Below are positions 378 to 43,947 of a stretch of 46,451 bases of DNA, in pieces; position 1 is the stretch's first letter, and each line of letters starts with the position of its first letter. The notes under the pieces were generated by a model. That model did not search any database and had not been told where the DNA came from. It was given only the letters and a program-made list of their open reading frames with translations. Position numbers and translations under genes: made by a program. The DNA comes from Thermoproteota archaeon (lineage in GTDB: Archaea > Korarchaeota > Korarchaeia > B14-G2), in the NCBI GenBank assembly GCA_003661385.1, contig QMWA01000002.1:1-46451 (forward strand). The letters are read 5' to 3'.

Positions 378-463
378 TGCTCCGGGCGGGATTCGAACCC
401 GCGCTAGCGGCTTTCTCCATGCTCGAGAGGCCGCCGTGCTTGGCCTGGCTACACTACCGGAGC
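378..463 (-). tRNA. tRNA-Glu(CTC) with one 11-nt intron at 37/38
   Basis: The minus strand folds as a cloverleaf with acceptor GCTCCGG/CCGGAGC and discriminator A. The spliced anticodon loop is CTCTCGA, giving anticodon CTC. The intron is 413-423. It is supported by a bulge-helix-bulge: loop bases CTCT pair with GGAG in the intron, with three-base bulges cut as CG|A and AA|A. At 11 nt this is about as short as archaeal tRNA introns get. CCA is not encoded. Confidence 0.93.
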
Positions 464-5108: not shown

Positions 5109-5196
5109 TGGACCGGGCGGGATTTGAACCCGCAACCTCCGCGATCACGTCTACATGATGCCAACGCGGCGCGCTACCAGGTTGCGCCACCGGCCC
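5109..5196 (-). tRNA. tRNA-Ala(GGC) with a 14-nt intron, boundary uncertain
   Basis: The acceptor pairs GGGCCGG with CCGGTCC and so contains G3-U70, the identity element of alanine tRNA; the acceptor and T-arm are the same as in tRNA-Ala(CGC) of this window. The 5-base anticodon stem CCGCG/CGCGG encloses 21 bases, so about 14 (near 5145-5158) must be removed to leave TTGGCAT, anticodon GGC. I could not find a normal four-pair bulge-helix-bulge at any allowed junction; the intron itself forms a hairpin ATCATG/CGTGAT. The 3' CCA is encoded. Confidence 0.8.
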
Positions 5197-18278: not shown

Positions 18279-18376
18279 CGGGCCCGGAGGGACTCGAACC
18301 CTCGACCCCCGGGTCTGGGTTTGAAACTCCCCCACTGCTAAGAGCCCGGTGCTCTACCCAACTGAGCTACGGGCCC
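18279..18376 (-). tRNA. tRNA-Lys(CTT) with about 24 intron bases, splice sites unresolved
   Basis: Acceptor GGGCCCG/CGGGCCC with discriminator G fits archaeal lysine tRNA. The stem CCGGG/CCCGG encloses CTCTTA plus 24 extra bases (about 18315-18338). CTCT pairs with GGAG inside the insert, with bulges cut TA|G and TT|T, as for a canonical 37/38 intron, but that would leave ten bases too many before CCCGG. A second intron or a relaxed motif is needed. A reading as tRNA-Trp(CCA) is possible but G73 argues against it. Confidence 0.8.
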
Positions 18377-18415: not shown

Positions 18416-18513
18416 TGGACCGGGCGGGATTTGAACCCGCGACCTCCGCGTCTCTCAGGGTAGATGCGACACCGCTACCAGCGCGGCGATCTACCAGACT
18501 GATCTACCGGCCC
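18416..18513 (-). tRNA. tRNA-Ala(CGC) with two introns (32/33 and 37/38)
   Basis: Acceptor GGGCCGG/CCGGTCC contains G3-U70; T-arm GCGGG-TTCAAAT-CCCGC. Intron 1 (18470-18480, 11 nt) at 32/33 has the helix CCGC:GCGG with cuts GC|T and TG|T. Intron 2 (18452-18464, 13 nt) at 37/38 has the helix CTCG:TGAG with cuts CA|T and AG|A, but that helix needs C32, which is only next to T33 after intron 1 is gone. Spliced loop CTCGCAA, 74 nt. CCA is not encoded. Confidence 0.93.
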
Positions 18514-23326: not shown

Positions 23327-23896
23327 CTAGCCTTGTGTCCACGAGGATATATATTCTGCTAGCTTTCTCAGAGCTTTTGCTCTGTGGGATACCCTGTTCT
23401 TTTGAGGCCCCATCTCAGCGTAGGTTTCTCCAGACCCCTCTAGTGGGGCAAATATCGGGTCAAATCCCCATCCCGTGTTCCCACGCTCCTCTAGCGTAAT
23501 GTACCCGCTTACCTCAGCCTCCACTATGTGAACTCTATCAGAGGAATCTACCAGAGCCAGTACAGACCTGAACTTAGCTCGTCTATCCTTTACTCCGCTC
23601 ATAAGCTTTAGGATACCCCTACACCCGAGGGTCTTGTATACATAGGAGGAGTATGGGCCAGGAAACCCCCTTAACACGTGGATCTCTAGCGCAGAGTCCT
23701 CTATGAAAAATGGACGGTAGCTTAACTCTCTTGACAGCATCCTAGCACTCTCTGCTGCAACTTCTCTCACATTGCTCCTCTGAACCTCAGTATACTCTTT
23801 TAGACAGATGTCTACAGGAACTCCTAGAGAAGCTAAGATCTGTTTACACTCACTAGCCTTATTCTTATTTGAGGTGATAAACAAGAGAGGCCTCAA
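23327..23896 (-). CDS. Non-canonical purine NTP pyrophosphatase (ITPase/RdgB/HAM1)
   Basis: The 189-residue enzyme has the HAM1 signature: ITSNKNKASEC at the N-terminus (substrate binding), FFIEDSALEI, LRGFPGPYSSYV, and NTGWGFDPIFAP with a C-terminal SHRAKALRKL segment. It clears dITP/XTP from the nucleotide pool. Its start overlaps the bud32 stop by four bases (ATGA type), an operon pairing conserved in archaea. Confidence 0.94.
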   Translation of the reverse strand: MRPLLFITSNKNKASECKQILASLGVPVDICLKEYTEVQRSNVREVAAESARMLSRELSYRPFFIEDSALEIHVLRGFPGPYSSYVYKTLGCRGILKLMSGVKDRRAKFRSVLALVDSSDRVHIVEAEVSGYITLEERGNTGWGFDPIFAPLEGSGETYAEMGPQKNRVSHRAKALRKLAEYISSWTQG

Positions 23897-24519
23897 GCTC
23901 TATACCTCCCTCTGCTATAGATTTCACCTGCCCTCTTCAAGACAGGGGCTGCAGCAGCCCCTCTAACCTCCGTGTAGCCTTTGTTAAATAGGGACACCCC
24001 ATCATGGTAGATGTTGGGGTGAGTAGAGTCTATGCAACGGTAGAGGAGGTGTATGTCCTCACCTTGGTCCTCAATCCTATTAGAGTAGAAGCTAAGCCCA
24101 AAGTCTATCAGATAGAGCCTTCCTCTGGATAATATGACGTTTGATGTGGTTAGATCGCCGTGAATTATTCCAACAGAGTGGAGCTTACCGATCATCGCCC
24201 CGAGATCTCTTAGAAGGAAGGTATTCTTGCTAGACAGTGTATTCCTTAGGGTTAAGCCTGGAATGTGCTCCATTACTATGGTAGCCTCATCTAAATCGAC
24301 ATAGAGGACAGCTGGACAGAGGACACCAGCTTGCTTTGCGTCACGCATGATCTTAGCTTCTAGCATGGTTCTATGTCTTCTTAGCTGTTCATCTAGCTCC
24401 TTTAACCTGTAGCCCTTAGGCTTTCTCACCTTGAAAACAGATGGAATCCCCAGGAAGACTCCCCTGATAAGTATAGCTTCGGCACCAGCAGCTATAACTT
24501 CATGCCTAGCTATCTCCAA
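23893..24519 (-). CDS. bud32: KEOPS kinase Bud32 (PRPK)
   Basis: The 208-residue protein has the small kinase fold of Bud32: EAILIRG and VFKVRKPKGYR (nucleotide-binding Lys), VMEHIPG hinge, catalytic HGDLTTSNVIL and LIDFGLSF, then a C-terminal segment ending RGRYRA. In KEOPS it acts with Kae1, Cgi121 and Pcc1 to make t6A37 of tRNA; Pcc1 is encoded at 43934-44308. The TTG start overlaps pcm by ten bases. Confidence 0.95.
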   Translation of the reverse strand: MEIARHEVIAAGAEAILIRGVFLGIPSVFKVRKPKGYRLKELDEQLRRHRTMLEAKIMRDAKQAGVLCPAVLYVDLDEATIVMEHIPGLTLRNTLSSKNTFLLRDLGAMIGKLHSVGIIHGDLTTSNVILSRGRLYLIDFGLSFYSNRIEDQGEDIHLLYRCIDSTHPNIYHDGVSLFNKGYTEVRGAAAAPVLKRAGEIYSRGRYRA

Positions 24520-25213
24520 CCTTCTCTCCCTCTTAGCGGGACAAATGCCACAGCACCAGCCTTCTTGGTCGAAACGGATCCCTTAAGATCCTTCCTGACC
24601 ACGAGCAGCTCTTGGCCCCAGAGGGAGTGAGGAGGGCCTATTGGTATAACCATCAGACCACCAGGTGCCAACTGATCGACCAGAGGAGGAGGAACCCTTG
24701 GTGCAGCAGCAGTAACCAGAATCCTATCGTATGGAGCGTGAGGGGGATACCCAACACTTCCATCACCAACTATCACAACGACTCTATCTGAATATCCCGC
24801 AGATTTGAGGTTCTGGATTGCACGTTGGGCTAATATCTCATCTATCTCTATGGAGTACACCTTACCCCACTTAGATCTATCTACATCGAGGGGGGCTACT
24901 ATCTCAGCTATTGTGGCAGCATGGTATCCACTTCCAGTCCCAACCTCCAGCACCTTCATTCCCACGTCAAGCTCTAGGAGCTCATTCATCAGGCAAACCA
25001 TGTCTCGCCCGGCTTACAGCCGTGTGGCGCACTTATGGTTTGCCCTCTCCCTATGGGGAGCGGAATGTCATCGTAAGCCTGCTCTCTTAGGTCTTCTGGG
25101 ACGAAAAGCTCTCGCCTAACCCTTAGGAATGCCTTCTTGACCCTCTCAGTCTTTATAAAGCCTTCGGCCTGCAGTAGCCTGCATAGCTCAGCTCTCCTCT
25201 TATCAAAGCTCAC
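24510..25213 (-). CDS. pcm: L-isoaspartyl O-methyltransferase, gene interrupted by a BHB intron
   Basis: Exon 1 runs 25213-25024 and exon 2 25003-24510. Joined they encode 227 residues, normal for Pcm: [16 protein letters not shown] joins to [14 protein letters not shown], then [17 protein letters not shown] (SAM site) and [20 protein letters not shown]. Unspliced, exon 1 runs into TGA soon after GQTISAPH and exon 2 has no N-terminus. The 20-base insertion shifts the frame but is bounded by a complete bulge-helix-bulge. Pcm repairs isoaspartyl sites in aged proteins. GTG start at 25213 follows GGGGGTG. Alternatives: assembly error, pseudogene, or split gene. Confidence 0.85.
24992..25044. repeat. 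Ten-base perfect inverted repeat enclosing the pcm intron
   Basis: GGCAAACCAT and ATGGTTTGCC lie on either side of the bulge-helix-bulge, in exons 1 and 2. They can pair as an outer stem around the splice motif, with the left strand leaving AAGTG and the right strand AGAC unpaired or partly paired. Both arms are coding (the conserved GQT and MVCL of Pcm). Confidence 0.85.
25004..25023 (-). other. Predicted pre-mRNA bulge-helix-bulge intron in pcm
   Basis: On the minus strand the exon/intron region reads GTG-CGCC-ACA-CGGCT-GTA-AGCCG-GGCG-AGA-CAT. Central helix CGCC:GGCG has four pairs; the left bulge ACA and right bulge AGA have three bases; inner helix CGGCT:AGCCG has five pairs with a GTA loop; outer helix GTG:CAT has three. 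Cutting after the second base of each bulge (AC|A, AG|A) removes exactly these 20 bases and makes the codons CCA-CAC-ATG continuous. Confidence 0.85.
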
Positions 25214-25259
25214 ATACACCCCCAGAATCTTTATGTGTATGCCTAAAATATTACCTGAG

Positions 25260-25676
25260 ATGCTGAAGGAGGAGATAATAGCCTGGGGACACCCTAACAT
25301 AACAGCAAGACATAGAACAACGTTTCAGGTGACAAAGGACCCTGAAATAACCAAGAGAGCAGACTGTGTGATAGGAGTTAAGGCTAATAAGGCATGTGCA
25401 GACCTTAGTGATGAGATGAAGCAGCACATAAAAGCAGGGAGGCTGCTGAGAATAAGAATACAGGCTGGAGGAGTTACCGATGAGATAATAGCGAGAGGAG
25501 CTAGAGGCGCTTCCCTCGCTAGTGAAAGAGACCTTGTAGTGAGGAAGTCAGCTTACATAGATGACAGGACGCTAGCAATCAAAGCCAATAAAGCTGCCAG
25601 AGAGATCGATAGGAGGATAATCAGACTAGTTAGGAGCCCAAATACAGTGATCAGGATCATAGTAGAGGCTATCTAG
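25260..25676 (+). CDS. DUF371 protein
   Basis: The 138-residue protein begins [30 protein letters not shown] and continues [23 protein letters not shown], then [23 protein letters not shown]. This is the DUF371 pattern, a conserved archaeal protein of unknown function. The ATG at 25260 fits a TTTATGTG box about 26 bases upstream (leaderless); upstream ATGs at 25233 and 25239 would extend it. Divergent from pcm. Confidence 0.82.
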
Positions 25677-31315: not shown

Positions 31316-32129
31316 CTAGCTTGAGAGCTATGCTCTCGGCAAGCACCCCGTAGTCAAGAGACCTCGGTACAGAGAACCCTCTCTTGGATAGGTGGGCGTA
31401 TAGGTCTACAGATACCGGAGGAACCAAGTTACATGACTTAAGAAGGGTATAGTTGAAGAATATGTCTTCAGGAACACCTTCAGCTATCACTTTACCCTTA
31501 GACAGGAGAACAACCTTATCAGCACCTAGCTCGGATGCCCACTCGACATCGTGTGTTATCACAAGCACAGCTTTCCCCTCAGCCTTCATGCCGAAAATCA
31601 GGTCTATAAGAGCCTTCTTCTGCTTTGCATCTTGGCCTATGGTCGGCTCATCTAAGATCAAGTACTTTGGCTGCATCGCATACACAGAAGCTATCGACAG
31701 ACGCTTCATCTCCCCGCCACTAAGCTGCCACGGCGGTGTTGAAGCATATCTCTCCAAGCCAAACTTCCTTAGGACAGAGAGAGCCTCGTCTAAGGCCTCC
31801 TTATCGCCTAATCCTAGATTCCTCAGGCCAAAGGCAACTTCCTCAGCAGCGTTCTCAGCAAAAAACTGGTGCTCAGGGTTCTGAGGCACATAGCCGACTA
31901 TCCTACAGAGCTCTGCTACGCTATGCTCTCGGGTATCTAGGCCATCTACCACAACACGGCCTGACTTAGGCTTCAGCAACCCATTCAATAACTTAGCTAA
32001 GGTAGTTTTACCAGAGCCATTCTCCCCCATCAGAAGAACCACATCCCCATCGCTTATAGTCAGCGATACATCATCTAACACAGTGGCCCCCCTGCTGTAC
32101 CAGAAACAGACTCTTTCAACGGAGATCAA
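31284..32129 (-). CDS. ecfA2: ECF transporter ATPase EcfA2
   Basis: The 281-residue ABC ATPase has Walker A GENGSGKT near residue 36, the Q-loop VPQNPEHQ, signature LSGGEMKR, Walker B YLILDEPT and H-loop VITHDVEW. It lies between ecfA1 and ecfT, overlapping both (14 and 32 bases), as expected of one operon. It forms a heterodimer with EcfA1 energising vitamin or metal import. Confidence 0.93.
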   Translation of the reverse strand: MISVERVCFWYSRGATVLDDVSLTISDGDVVLLMGENGSGKTTLAKLLNGLLKPKSGRVVVDGLDTREHSVAELCRIVGYVPQNPEHQFFAENAAEEVAFGLRNLGLGDKEALDEALSVLRKFGLERYASTPPWQLSGGEMKRLSIASVYAMQPKYLILDEPTIGQDAKQKKALIDLIFGMKAEGKAVLVITHDVEWASELGADKVVLLSKGKVIAEGVPEDIFFNYTLLKSCNLVPPVSVDLYAHLSKRGFSVPRSLDYGVLAESIALKLGGSSVVSGSI

Positions 32130-43143: not shown

Positions 43144-43375
43144 GATAATCAAGGCCCCCAGATATGGTAAGACCGTCAGAGACAGGTACAATGAGGCGGT
43201 TAGGAAAGCTAAGGCAACGTATGAGTGCCCAAGATGCAGAATGAAGAGAGTAAGACAAGTGATGGCAGGAATCTGGAGGTGCAGAAAATGCGGAGCAACA
43301 TTCACAGGAGGAGCATGGACCCCTAGAACAGACATGGGGTCTGAGAGAAGAGTGCTGCCACCAAGCGCAAAATGA
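43136..43375 (+). CDS. rpl37ae: Ribosomal protein L37Ae (eL43)
   Basis: The 79-residue protein has the L37Ae zinc site CPRC...CRKC within YECPRCRMKRVRQVMAGIWRCRKCGATFTGGAWTP. It overlaps rrp42 and the Brix gene by eight and four bases. In many archaea an rpoP gene follows here; none lies between this gene and the Brix gene. Confidence 0.96.
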   Translation: MPKIIKAPRYGKTVRDRYNEAVRKAKATYECPRCRMKRVRQVMAGIWRCRKCGATFTGGAWTPRTDMGSERRVLPPSAK

Positions 43376-43947
43376 TCCTGATAACAACATCTAGAAGACC
43401 AACCCAAAGGATAAGAAGCTTCATAAAAGACCTAGCCAGATCAATACCGAATGCAGTCAAGAGAAACAGAGGCAAAGCTTCCACTGAAGACCTCTGCATC
43501 GAAGCTGTCGCAAGAGGACTACCCAGAGTGCTTATAGTGGAGAGATGGAAAGGAAACCCAGGAATGCTGAGGTTTATCCTAGCAGCACCAAGACTATGTG
43601 AACAGATAAGAATAGCATTCATACTGAAGGGAATAACCCTATCGAGGGAAATAGGGCTGAAAAGCAGGAGGAAAACAGACAAAAGAGAACTCATCATAGC
43701 AGCCCCATCTAACGCAGGCAAAGAGAGCCAAACCCTATGTGAAGAACTCGCTTTTTGCCTAGGAGAGCACATAGCAGTCGAGCACATAAACATAAGCAGG
43801 AAGCCAGAGGGATATGAGGAGTACTCCGTGCTCGCTCTGACAGCATGGAATCAAGGCTGGAAATTCACCTTCTACGATGGGGAGACCTGGGATGAGACCG
43901 GCCCAAGGTTCACAATCAAAGGGGTTTGGACCTTTGGTAAGGCTTAG
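43372..43947 (+). CDS. Brix-domain (Imp4-like) rRNA-biogenesis protein
   Basis: The 191-residue protein starts ILITTSRRPTQRIRSFIKDLARSIPNAVKRNRGKASTEDLCIEAVARG and has RVLIVERWKGNPG and PRFTIKGVW near the end, the pattern of archaeal Brix proteins. In eukaryotes Imp4-family proteins act in U3-dependent 18S rRNA processing. It overlaps rpl37ae by four bases. Confidence 0.92.
   Translation: MILITTSRRPTQRIRSFIKDLARSIPNAVKRNRGKASTEDLCIEAVARGLPRVLIVERWKGNPGMLRFILAAPRLCEQIRIAFILKGITLSREIGLKSRRKTDKRELIIAAPSNAGKESQTLCEELAFCLGEHIAVEHINISRKPEGYEEYSVLALTAWNQGWKFTFYDGETWDETGPRFTIKGVWTFGKA

What the first reader, a model, noticed from the sequence alone, without database searches (positions are those of the whole stretch)
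24510..25213. pcm is interrupted by what looks like a spliced pre-mRNA bulge-helix-bulge intron
Seen directly: exon 1 of L-isoaspartyl methyltransferase ends in a frameshift, and 20 bases (25004-25023) inside the broken spot form a full bulge-helix-bulge (central helix CGCC:GGCG, bulges ACA and AGA, inner hairpin CGGCT-GTA-AGCCG). Cutting after the second base of each bulge gives a 227-residue protein with the conserved ...SAPHMV... junction in frame. Known: archaeal splicing endonuclease removes BHB introns from tRNAs and, in a few cases (cbf5 in crenarchaea), from mRNAs. I do not know of one in pcm, so this may be an undescribed intron-bearing gene.
Basis: partly seen in the sequence, partly recalled or inferred. 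Interest (0 to 1): 0.93.

Follow-up and report, generated by a model that had tools for sequence, protein, structure and literature searches.

The report
Short spliced intron in archaeal pcm
A 20-base hairpin that breaks a protein-repair gene in a korarchaeal genome is almost certainly a tiny intron cut out of the messenger RNA by the cell's tRNA-splicing enzymes; the same intron sits at the same spot in 7 korarchaeal and 14 Asgard copies of the gene, whereas only two archaeal mRNAs had been reported with introns of this kind in the papers I could read.

Summary
On the minus strand, 25023-25004 is a 20-nt insert in pcm (L-isoaspartyl methyltransferase). It has a 4-bp central helix (CGCC:GGCG), 3-nt bulges (ACA, AGA) and a 5-bp inner hairpin. 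Cutting by the BHB rule gives a 227-aa PCMT (Pfam 220.7 bits; the halves score 54.4 and 150.2). The same phase-1 site (CCA C|AC ATG, motif SAPHM) carries 20-32 nt BHB inserts in 7 Korarchaeia and 14 Asgard genes (6 families). Helices in the 15 aligned introns are 100% paired, with 27 compensatory cells against 7.4±2.2 by shuffle. Insert lengths fall in all three mod-3 classes, even within one genus, and exon dN/dS is 0.05-0.24, so frameshifting, pseudogene and assembly error fail. Korarchaeum, its sister genus and all other archaeal genes detected by the model have the uninterrupted 43-nt junction. The genome encodes EndA (with the crenarchaeal loop lysine) and RtcB. Known mRNA BHB introns in the papers read are only crenarchaeal cbf5 and a Haloferax 5'UTR. 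In passing, rtcB in one Asgard family carries a stop-containing BHB-like insert. The outer helix is weak (relaxed BHB).

The parts
25024..25213 (-). pcm exon 1 (63 codons plus first base of the His codon); start codon (GTG at 25213) not verified
   Evidence: Translation and Pfam PF01135 positions 3-60
25004..25023 (-). 20-nt BHB intron ACGGCTGTAAGCCGGGCGAG, phase 1
   Evidence: BHB cut rule, fold, 20 further genes with an insert at the same site
24510..25003 (-). pcm exon 2 (rest of His codon, 163 aa including AdoMet motif [12 protein letters not shown], stop)
   Evidence: Pfam PF01135 positions 60/61-209
25026..25029 (-). central helix, exon-1 strand CGCC
   Evidence: Pairs with 25006-25009; compensatory CACC:GGUG in two Asgard genes
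25023..25025 (-). 5' bulge ACA, predicted cut after second base
25010..25022 (-). inner hairpin CGGCT-GTA-AGCCG
   Evidence: 5 bp, all five positions show double changes across 15 genes
25006..25009 (-). central helix, intron strand GGCG
25003..25005 (-). 3' bulge AGA, predicted cut after second base
23893..24519 (-). downstream kinase gene (Bud32/RIO type) overlapping the end of pcm; a Bud32-like frame also follows pcm in intron-plus and intron-less korarchaeal relatives (by eye)
25137..25676 (+). divergent neighbour, DUF371 (true start probably about 25251)

Best explanation
The insert is an archaeal pre-mRNA intron of the bulge-helix-bulge type. In the pcm transcript, exon bases CGCC pair with intron bases GGCG beside the inner hairpin, giving the BHB core. 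The splicing endonuclease EndA cuts between the second and third base of each bulge, and RtcB (or an equivalent ligase) joins the exons, giving CCA CAC ATG (P-H-M) and a full methyltransferase. The 20-nt intron may be released as a small circle. Shown: sequence, structure, restored frame, conservation, covariation, presence of EndA and RtcB genes. Inferred: cleavage, ligation, and the spliced mRNA as the translated form. Within Korarchaeia the most economical history is an intron present in the common ancestor and lost once, precisely, in the Korarchaeum plus sister-genus clade.
For: Restored ORF and Pfam gain, 220.7 bits spliced versus 54.4 and 150.2. Same-site inserts in 7 Korarchaeia and 14 Asgard genes, each restored in frame by the BHB rule. 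Covariation: 100% of 135 cells paired, 27 double changes versus 7.4±2.2, score 0.606 versus 0.217±0.033; slid registers pair 26-47%. Six inserts outside the model's training set fit. Lengths 20-32 nt, mod-3 counts 15/4/2 for remainders 2/1/0; sister genomes G159 (31 nt) and G167 (30 nt) differ by one base, yet exon dN/dS is 0.09. All other covariance-model hits counted as intronless are exactly the 43-nt exon junction. EndA with Tyr/His/Lys and the crenarchaea-specific-loop Lys, and RtcB, occur in the genome. Several tRNAs on the same contig have intron-like inserts of 11-24 nt.
Against: No RNA evidence. The host is a 206-contig draft assembly. The outer helix is only 1-3 bp across the family, and in several members the unconstrained minimum-energy fold is not the BHB. 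The own-genome RtcB gene is on a contig end and carries a one-base frameshift.
Confidence: 0.93

Rival explanations
1. Programmed ribosomal frameshifting or bypassing over the hairpin, with the insert staying in the mRNA.
For: A stable hairpin at a frame break resembles recoding signals; 15 of 21 inserts have the same length class, 2 mod 3.
Against: Lengths fall in all three mod-3 classes, including one-base differences between sister genomes. Stops lie inside inserts of length 0 mod 3. The covarying central helix joins exon to intron exactly as BHB cleavage needs. A bypass would not need cut positions at the second base of both bulges.
Confidence: 0.02
2. The gene is really two genes: separate N- and C-terminal polypeptides, the second starting at the ATG just after the insert, that assemble.
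For: Exon 2 begins with ACATGG in most species, so an ATG lies at the junction; any insert length would be tolerated.
Against: That Met is conserved in uninterrupted relatives too. G007 has ATT there. It does not explain the exon-intron compensatory helix or exact-excision relatives.
Confidence: 0.02
3. A pseudogene, or an assembly or sequencing error.
For: The host genome is a draft; its rtcB has a probable one-base error.
Against: Nineteen other assemblies share the insert site with different sequences, some in large contigs. Exons are under purifying selection, dN/dS 0.05-0.24. A random error would not yield a BHB.
Confidence: 0.01
4. The insert is real and cut as BHB RNA, but mainly as a regulatory cleavage that destroys the mRNA rather than splicing it.
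For: EndA cleavage without productive ligation is possible; the Haloferax case (PMC7714728) links EndA cleavage to expression level.
Against: In-frame joining at exactly the conserved P-H-M codons in all 21 genes, and purifying selection on exon 2, imply that the joined product is used.
Confidence: 0.02

Closest known systems
cbf5 pre-mRNA intron of Crenarchaeota (Watanabe 2002; Yokobori 2009, PMC2738675)
   Same: BHB-type intron in a coding sequence, 16-44 nt, often relaxed motif, cut predicted between second and third base of each bulge, lineage-specific loss, hetero-oligomeric EndA with broad specificity.
   Different: Different gene (pcm), Korarchaeia and Asgard instead of Desulfurococcales/Sulfolobales; splicing of cbf5 was shown with cDNA, here not.
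HVO_1309 5'UTR BHB intron in Haloferax (PMC7714728)
   Same: mRNA substrate of the splicing endonuclease.
   Different: Lies in an untranslated region, while the pcm intron interrupts the coding frame at a conserved motif.
Archaeal tRNA BHB introns
   Same: Same motif, same size class (11-24 nt on this contig), presumably same enzymes.
   Different: Outer helix is a tRNA stem there; here it is 1-3 bp, presumably because codons constrain it.

Membership tests
Archaeal BHB pre-mRNA intron | Two 3-nt bulges separated by a 4-bp central helix | tested here: met
   Present in the window and, by cut register, in all 21 inserts; inner pairing of one (G200) is shifted
Archaeal BHB pre-mRNA intron | Removal by the bulge rule restores the protein exactly | tested here: met
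   All 21 genes give SAPH[MI] in frame and full-length PCMT
Archaeal BHB pre-mRNA intron | Outer helix adjacent to the bulges (needed for the canonical subtype only) | tested here: not met
   Only 1-3 bp, not conserved; relaxed motifs are common in cbf5 introns and accepted by broad-specificity EndA (PMC2738675, PMC12397907), so this excludes the canonical subtype, not the family
Archaeal BHB pre-mRNA intron | Structure kept by compensatory change | tested here: met
Archaeal BHB pre-mRNA intron | Host encodes splicing endonuclease and RtcB ligase | tested here: met
   EndA; RtcB (window genome's copy has a one-base frameshift at a contig end)
Archaeal BHB pre-mRNA intron | Spliced mRNA or circular intron seen | not testable with these tools
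   No RNA data
PCMT (PF01135) gene | Full-length profile match after excision | tested here: met
   2.4e-65, profile 3-209 of 210; PDB 2yxe at 1.5e-55

The most novel reading that the evidence does not exclude
The pcm intron is one homologous intron inherited from a common ancestor of Korarchaeia and Asgard archaea and lost in most descendants. These lineages hold a wider, overlooked set of spliced messages, including that of RtcB, the ligase that would have to splice its own mRNA.
Probability: 0.35. Interest if true: 0.88.

Novelty: new member of a known kind. Interest (0 to 1): 0.78.

Why it matters
Archaeal mRNA splicing has rested on essentially one coding gene (cbf5). A second coding-sequence intron, at an identical site in two phyla including relatives of eukaryotes, shows that the tRNA-type route to mRNA introns is older or more easily established than thought. 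It gives a natural series of intron-plus and intron-less genes to study gain and loss, and warns that gene callers split such genes. The rtcB insert suggests a testable feedback loop.

Tried and rejected
A named-genome search for the window's exon 2 returned only bacteria, so names of the hosts are inferred. The own-genome rtcB break was checked as a possible intron and rejected: a single missing base in a G run. The BHB-like site 31317-31338 was considered a second intron and rejected as likely chance, since it would fuse two separate transporter genes; 43374-43392 lies in a frame without recognisable protein. tRNA synthetases were tested as a gauge of intron frequency; nearly all are uninterrupted, so introns are not everywhere. 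The 64-nt model hit in G579 is false. Recent transfer of the gene between the phyla is not supported: korarchaeal pcm genes form one clade, 100/91.

Full report
What is there. The minus strand from 25213 to 24510 encodes protein-L-isoaspartate methyltransferase in two frames. The first frame runs to ...QTISAPH and is then out of frame; the second resumes at MVCLMNELL. Between them lie 20 bases, 25023-25004. They form, with the flanking exon, the central helix CGCC:GGCG, the bulges ACA and AGA, and the hairpin CGGCT-GTA-AGCCG. Cutting after the second base of each bulge leaves CCA CAC ATG and a 227-residue protein. Pfam PCMT scores 220.7 bits on the joined protein and 54.4 and 150.2 on the pieces, and the best solved relative is 2yxe. 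The 61-nt region folds with z -4.5.

How unusual it is in the window. A scan of both strands for a 4-bp central helix, 3-nt bulges and an inner hairpin found 146 sites. Three would join open frames, and only this one joins halves of one protein.

Relatives. A PCMT profile over 150 related genomes showed the same break at profile position 60 in six other genomes of the same class and in one genome of a distant phylum. Each break is an insert at the same phase-1 position. The bulge rule restores SAPH[MI] in every case. The single-contig genome G002 has 1,590,757 bases, which from my memory is Korarchaeum cryptofilum OPF8. The distant genomes carry full-length eukaryote-type actin (E 1e-117 to 1e-138; none of the four named archaeal control genomes matches), so I call them Asgard archaea.

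Census. A DNA pattern over 195 Asgard-phylum genomes (read) and a covariance model over 227 found 14 interrupted pcm genes in 13 genomes of six families. Six of these (G156, G188, G194, G166, G150, G200) were not used to build the model and fit it, spliced in frame. The 5' bulge bases differ in three of them (TCT, ACG, ACT), so structure rather than sequence is kept. In 394 relatives across the archaea, every other listed model hit is exactly 43 nt, the uninterrupted exon junction. An earlier pattern search of 394 relatives gave only these genomes plus hits without a hairpin, by inspection. Genomes in which the model found no pcm hit are not informative.

Structure under selection. On 15 aligned introns all 135 base-pair cells are standard pairs, 27 carry changes on both sides against 7.4±2.2 in shuffles, and no shuffle reaches the covariation score; registers slid by 1-3 columns pair 26-47%. 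The exon-intron central helix itself has a compensatory change (CGCC:GGCG to CACC:GGUG) in two Asgard genes. The outer helix is only 1-3 bp, so the motif is a relaxed BHB.

Why splicing and not recoding or decay. Insert lengths are 20-32 nt with 15, 4 and 2 in the classes 2, 1 and 0 modulo 3. Sister genomes G159 and G167 have 31 and 30 nt, and G020 and G025 have 28 and 29. Both exons in these pairs are under strong purifying selection, dN/dS 0.07-0.10. The two inserts of length 0 mod 3 contain stop codons (for G167, for G156). A fixed frameshift cannot serve all of these.

Machinery. The genome has one EndA gene, a fusion of a degenerate and a catalytic domain, closest to Aeropyrum pernix EndA (3p1z, 3ajv; organism from my own knowledge). 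The catalytic Tyr, His and Lys and the lysine that aligns with Lys44 of the crenarchaea-specific loop are present (role of the loop lysine in relaxed recognition: PMC12397907). RtcB is present, with a probable one-base assembly error. Four of the five Rfam tRNA hits on this contig hold intron-like inserts, and one, at 378-463, fits a canonical BHB.

History. In a tree of 64 PCMT proteins, spliced where needed, the korarchaeal genes form one clade (100/91). The window gene branches first, then G021, then an intron-bearing and an intron-less clade (97/91). The simplest reading is presence in the korarchaeal ancestor and one exact loss. The Asgard genes fall elsewhere, so a recent transfer of the gene is not supported. 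Whether the identical site reflects one ancient intron or repeated gain is open. Korarchaeal and Asgard introns share bases beyond the pairing (ACGGCT...CGGGCGAG in the window and in G210), which leans to common origin.

Literature. PMC7714728 states that cbf5 was the only additional BHB intron reported, besides its own HVO_1309 5'UTR case; PMC2738675 describes cbf5. Searches joining isoaspartate with BHB or splicing endonuclease, and Asgard with BHB, found no prior pcm or Asgard mRNA case. The library lacks most subscription papers.

Limits. No transcript was seen; cleavage, ligation and use of the joined mRNA are inferred.

Noticed in passing
L113, L146, L147, L148 (rtcB of Asgard family f77: G158, G200, G174, G181): All four rtcB genes hold a 30-nt in-frame insert with a stop codon at LPD|AHQGYG, BHB-like (e.g. 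CCCG[AUC]CAUAAGAGG..CCUCCUAUG CGGG[AAG]); in G158 the bulge rule restores LPDAHQGYG. Probable second intron-bearing gene, and it is the splicing ligase. G200 and G174 fit less perfectly.
   Followed up: partly
L115 (actin gene of G158): An insert of about 34 nt at SVW|IGGS with a BHB-like fold; actins of the sister genomes G174, G181, G200 are intact. Intron or assembly error.
   Followed up: partly
G200:C32:282378-286744 and G158:C391 (L116): An actin paralogue is interrupted after profile position 59 by about 3.3 kb with a long open frame, intein-like or another mobile element.
   Followed up: no
window 378-463, 5109-5196, 18279-18376, 18416-18513 (minus): Four of five Rfam tRNA hits hold inserts of about 11-24 nt in the anticodon loop region; the one at 378-463 fits a canonical 11-nt BHB intron.
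   Followed up: partly
window 31317-31338 (minus): Perfect BHB-like hairpin at the join between an ECF-type ATPase frame and the following transmembrane frame; excision would fuse them. Probably chance.
   Followed up: partly
G000:C7:17484-18314 (L070): EndA is a single fused two-domain protein whose catalytic half resembles the crenarchaeal EndA of 3p1z/3ajv, including the loop lysine.
   Followed up: partly
G000:C181 (L112): rtcB of the window's genome is broken by one missing base in a GGG run at a contig end, likely an assembly error.
   Followed up: yes
G210:C132 (L081), G210:C172 (L090), G210:C160:36012-37716: G210 (12% contamination) carries two distinct pcm genes, both with the intron, and a tRNA-synthetase gene split by a stop.
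   Followed up: no
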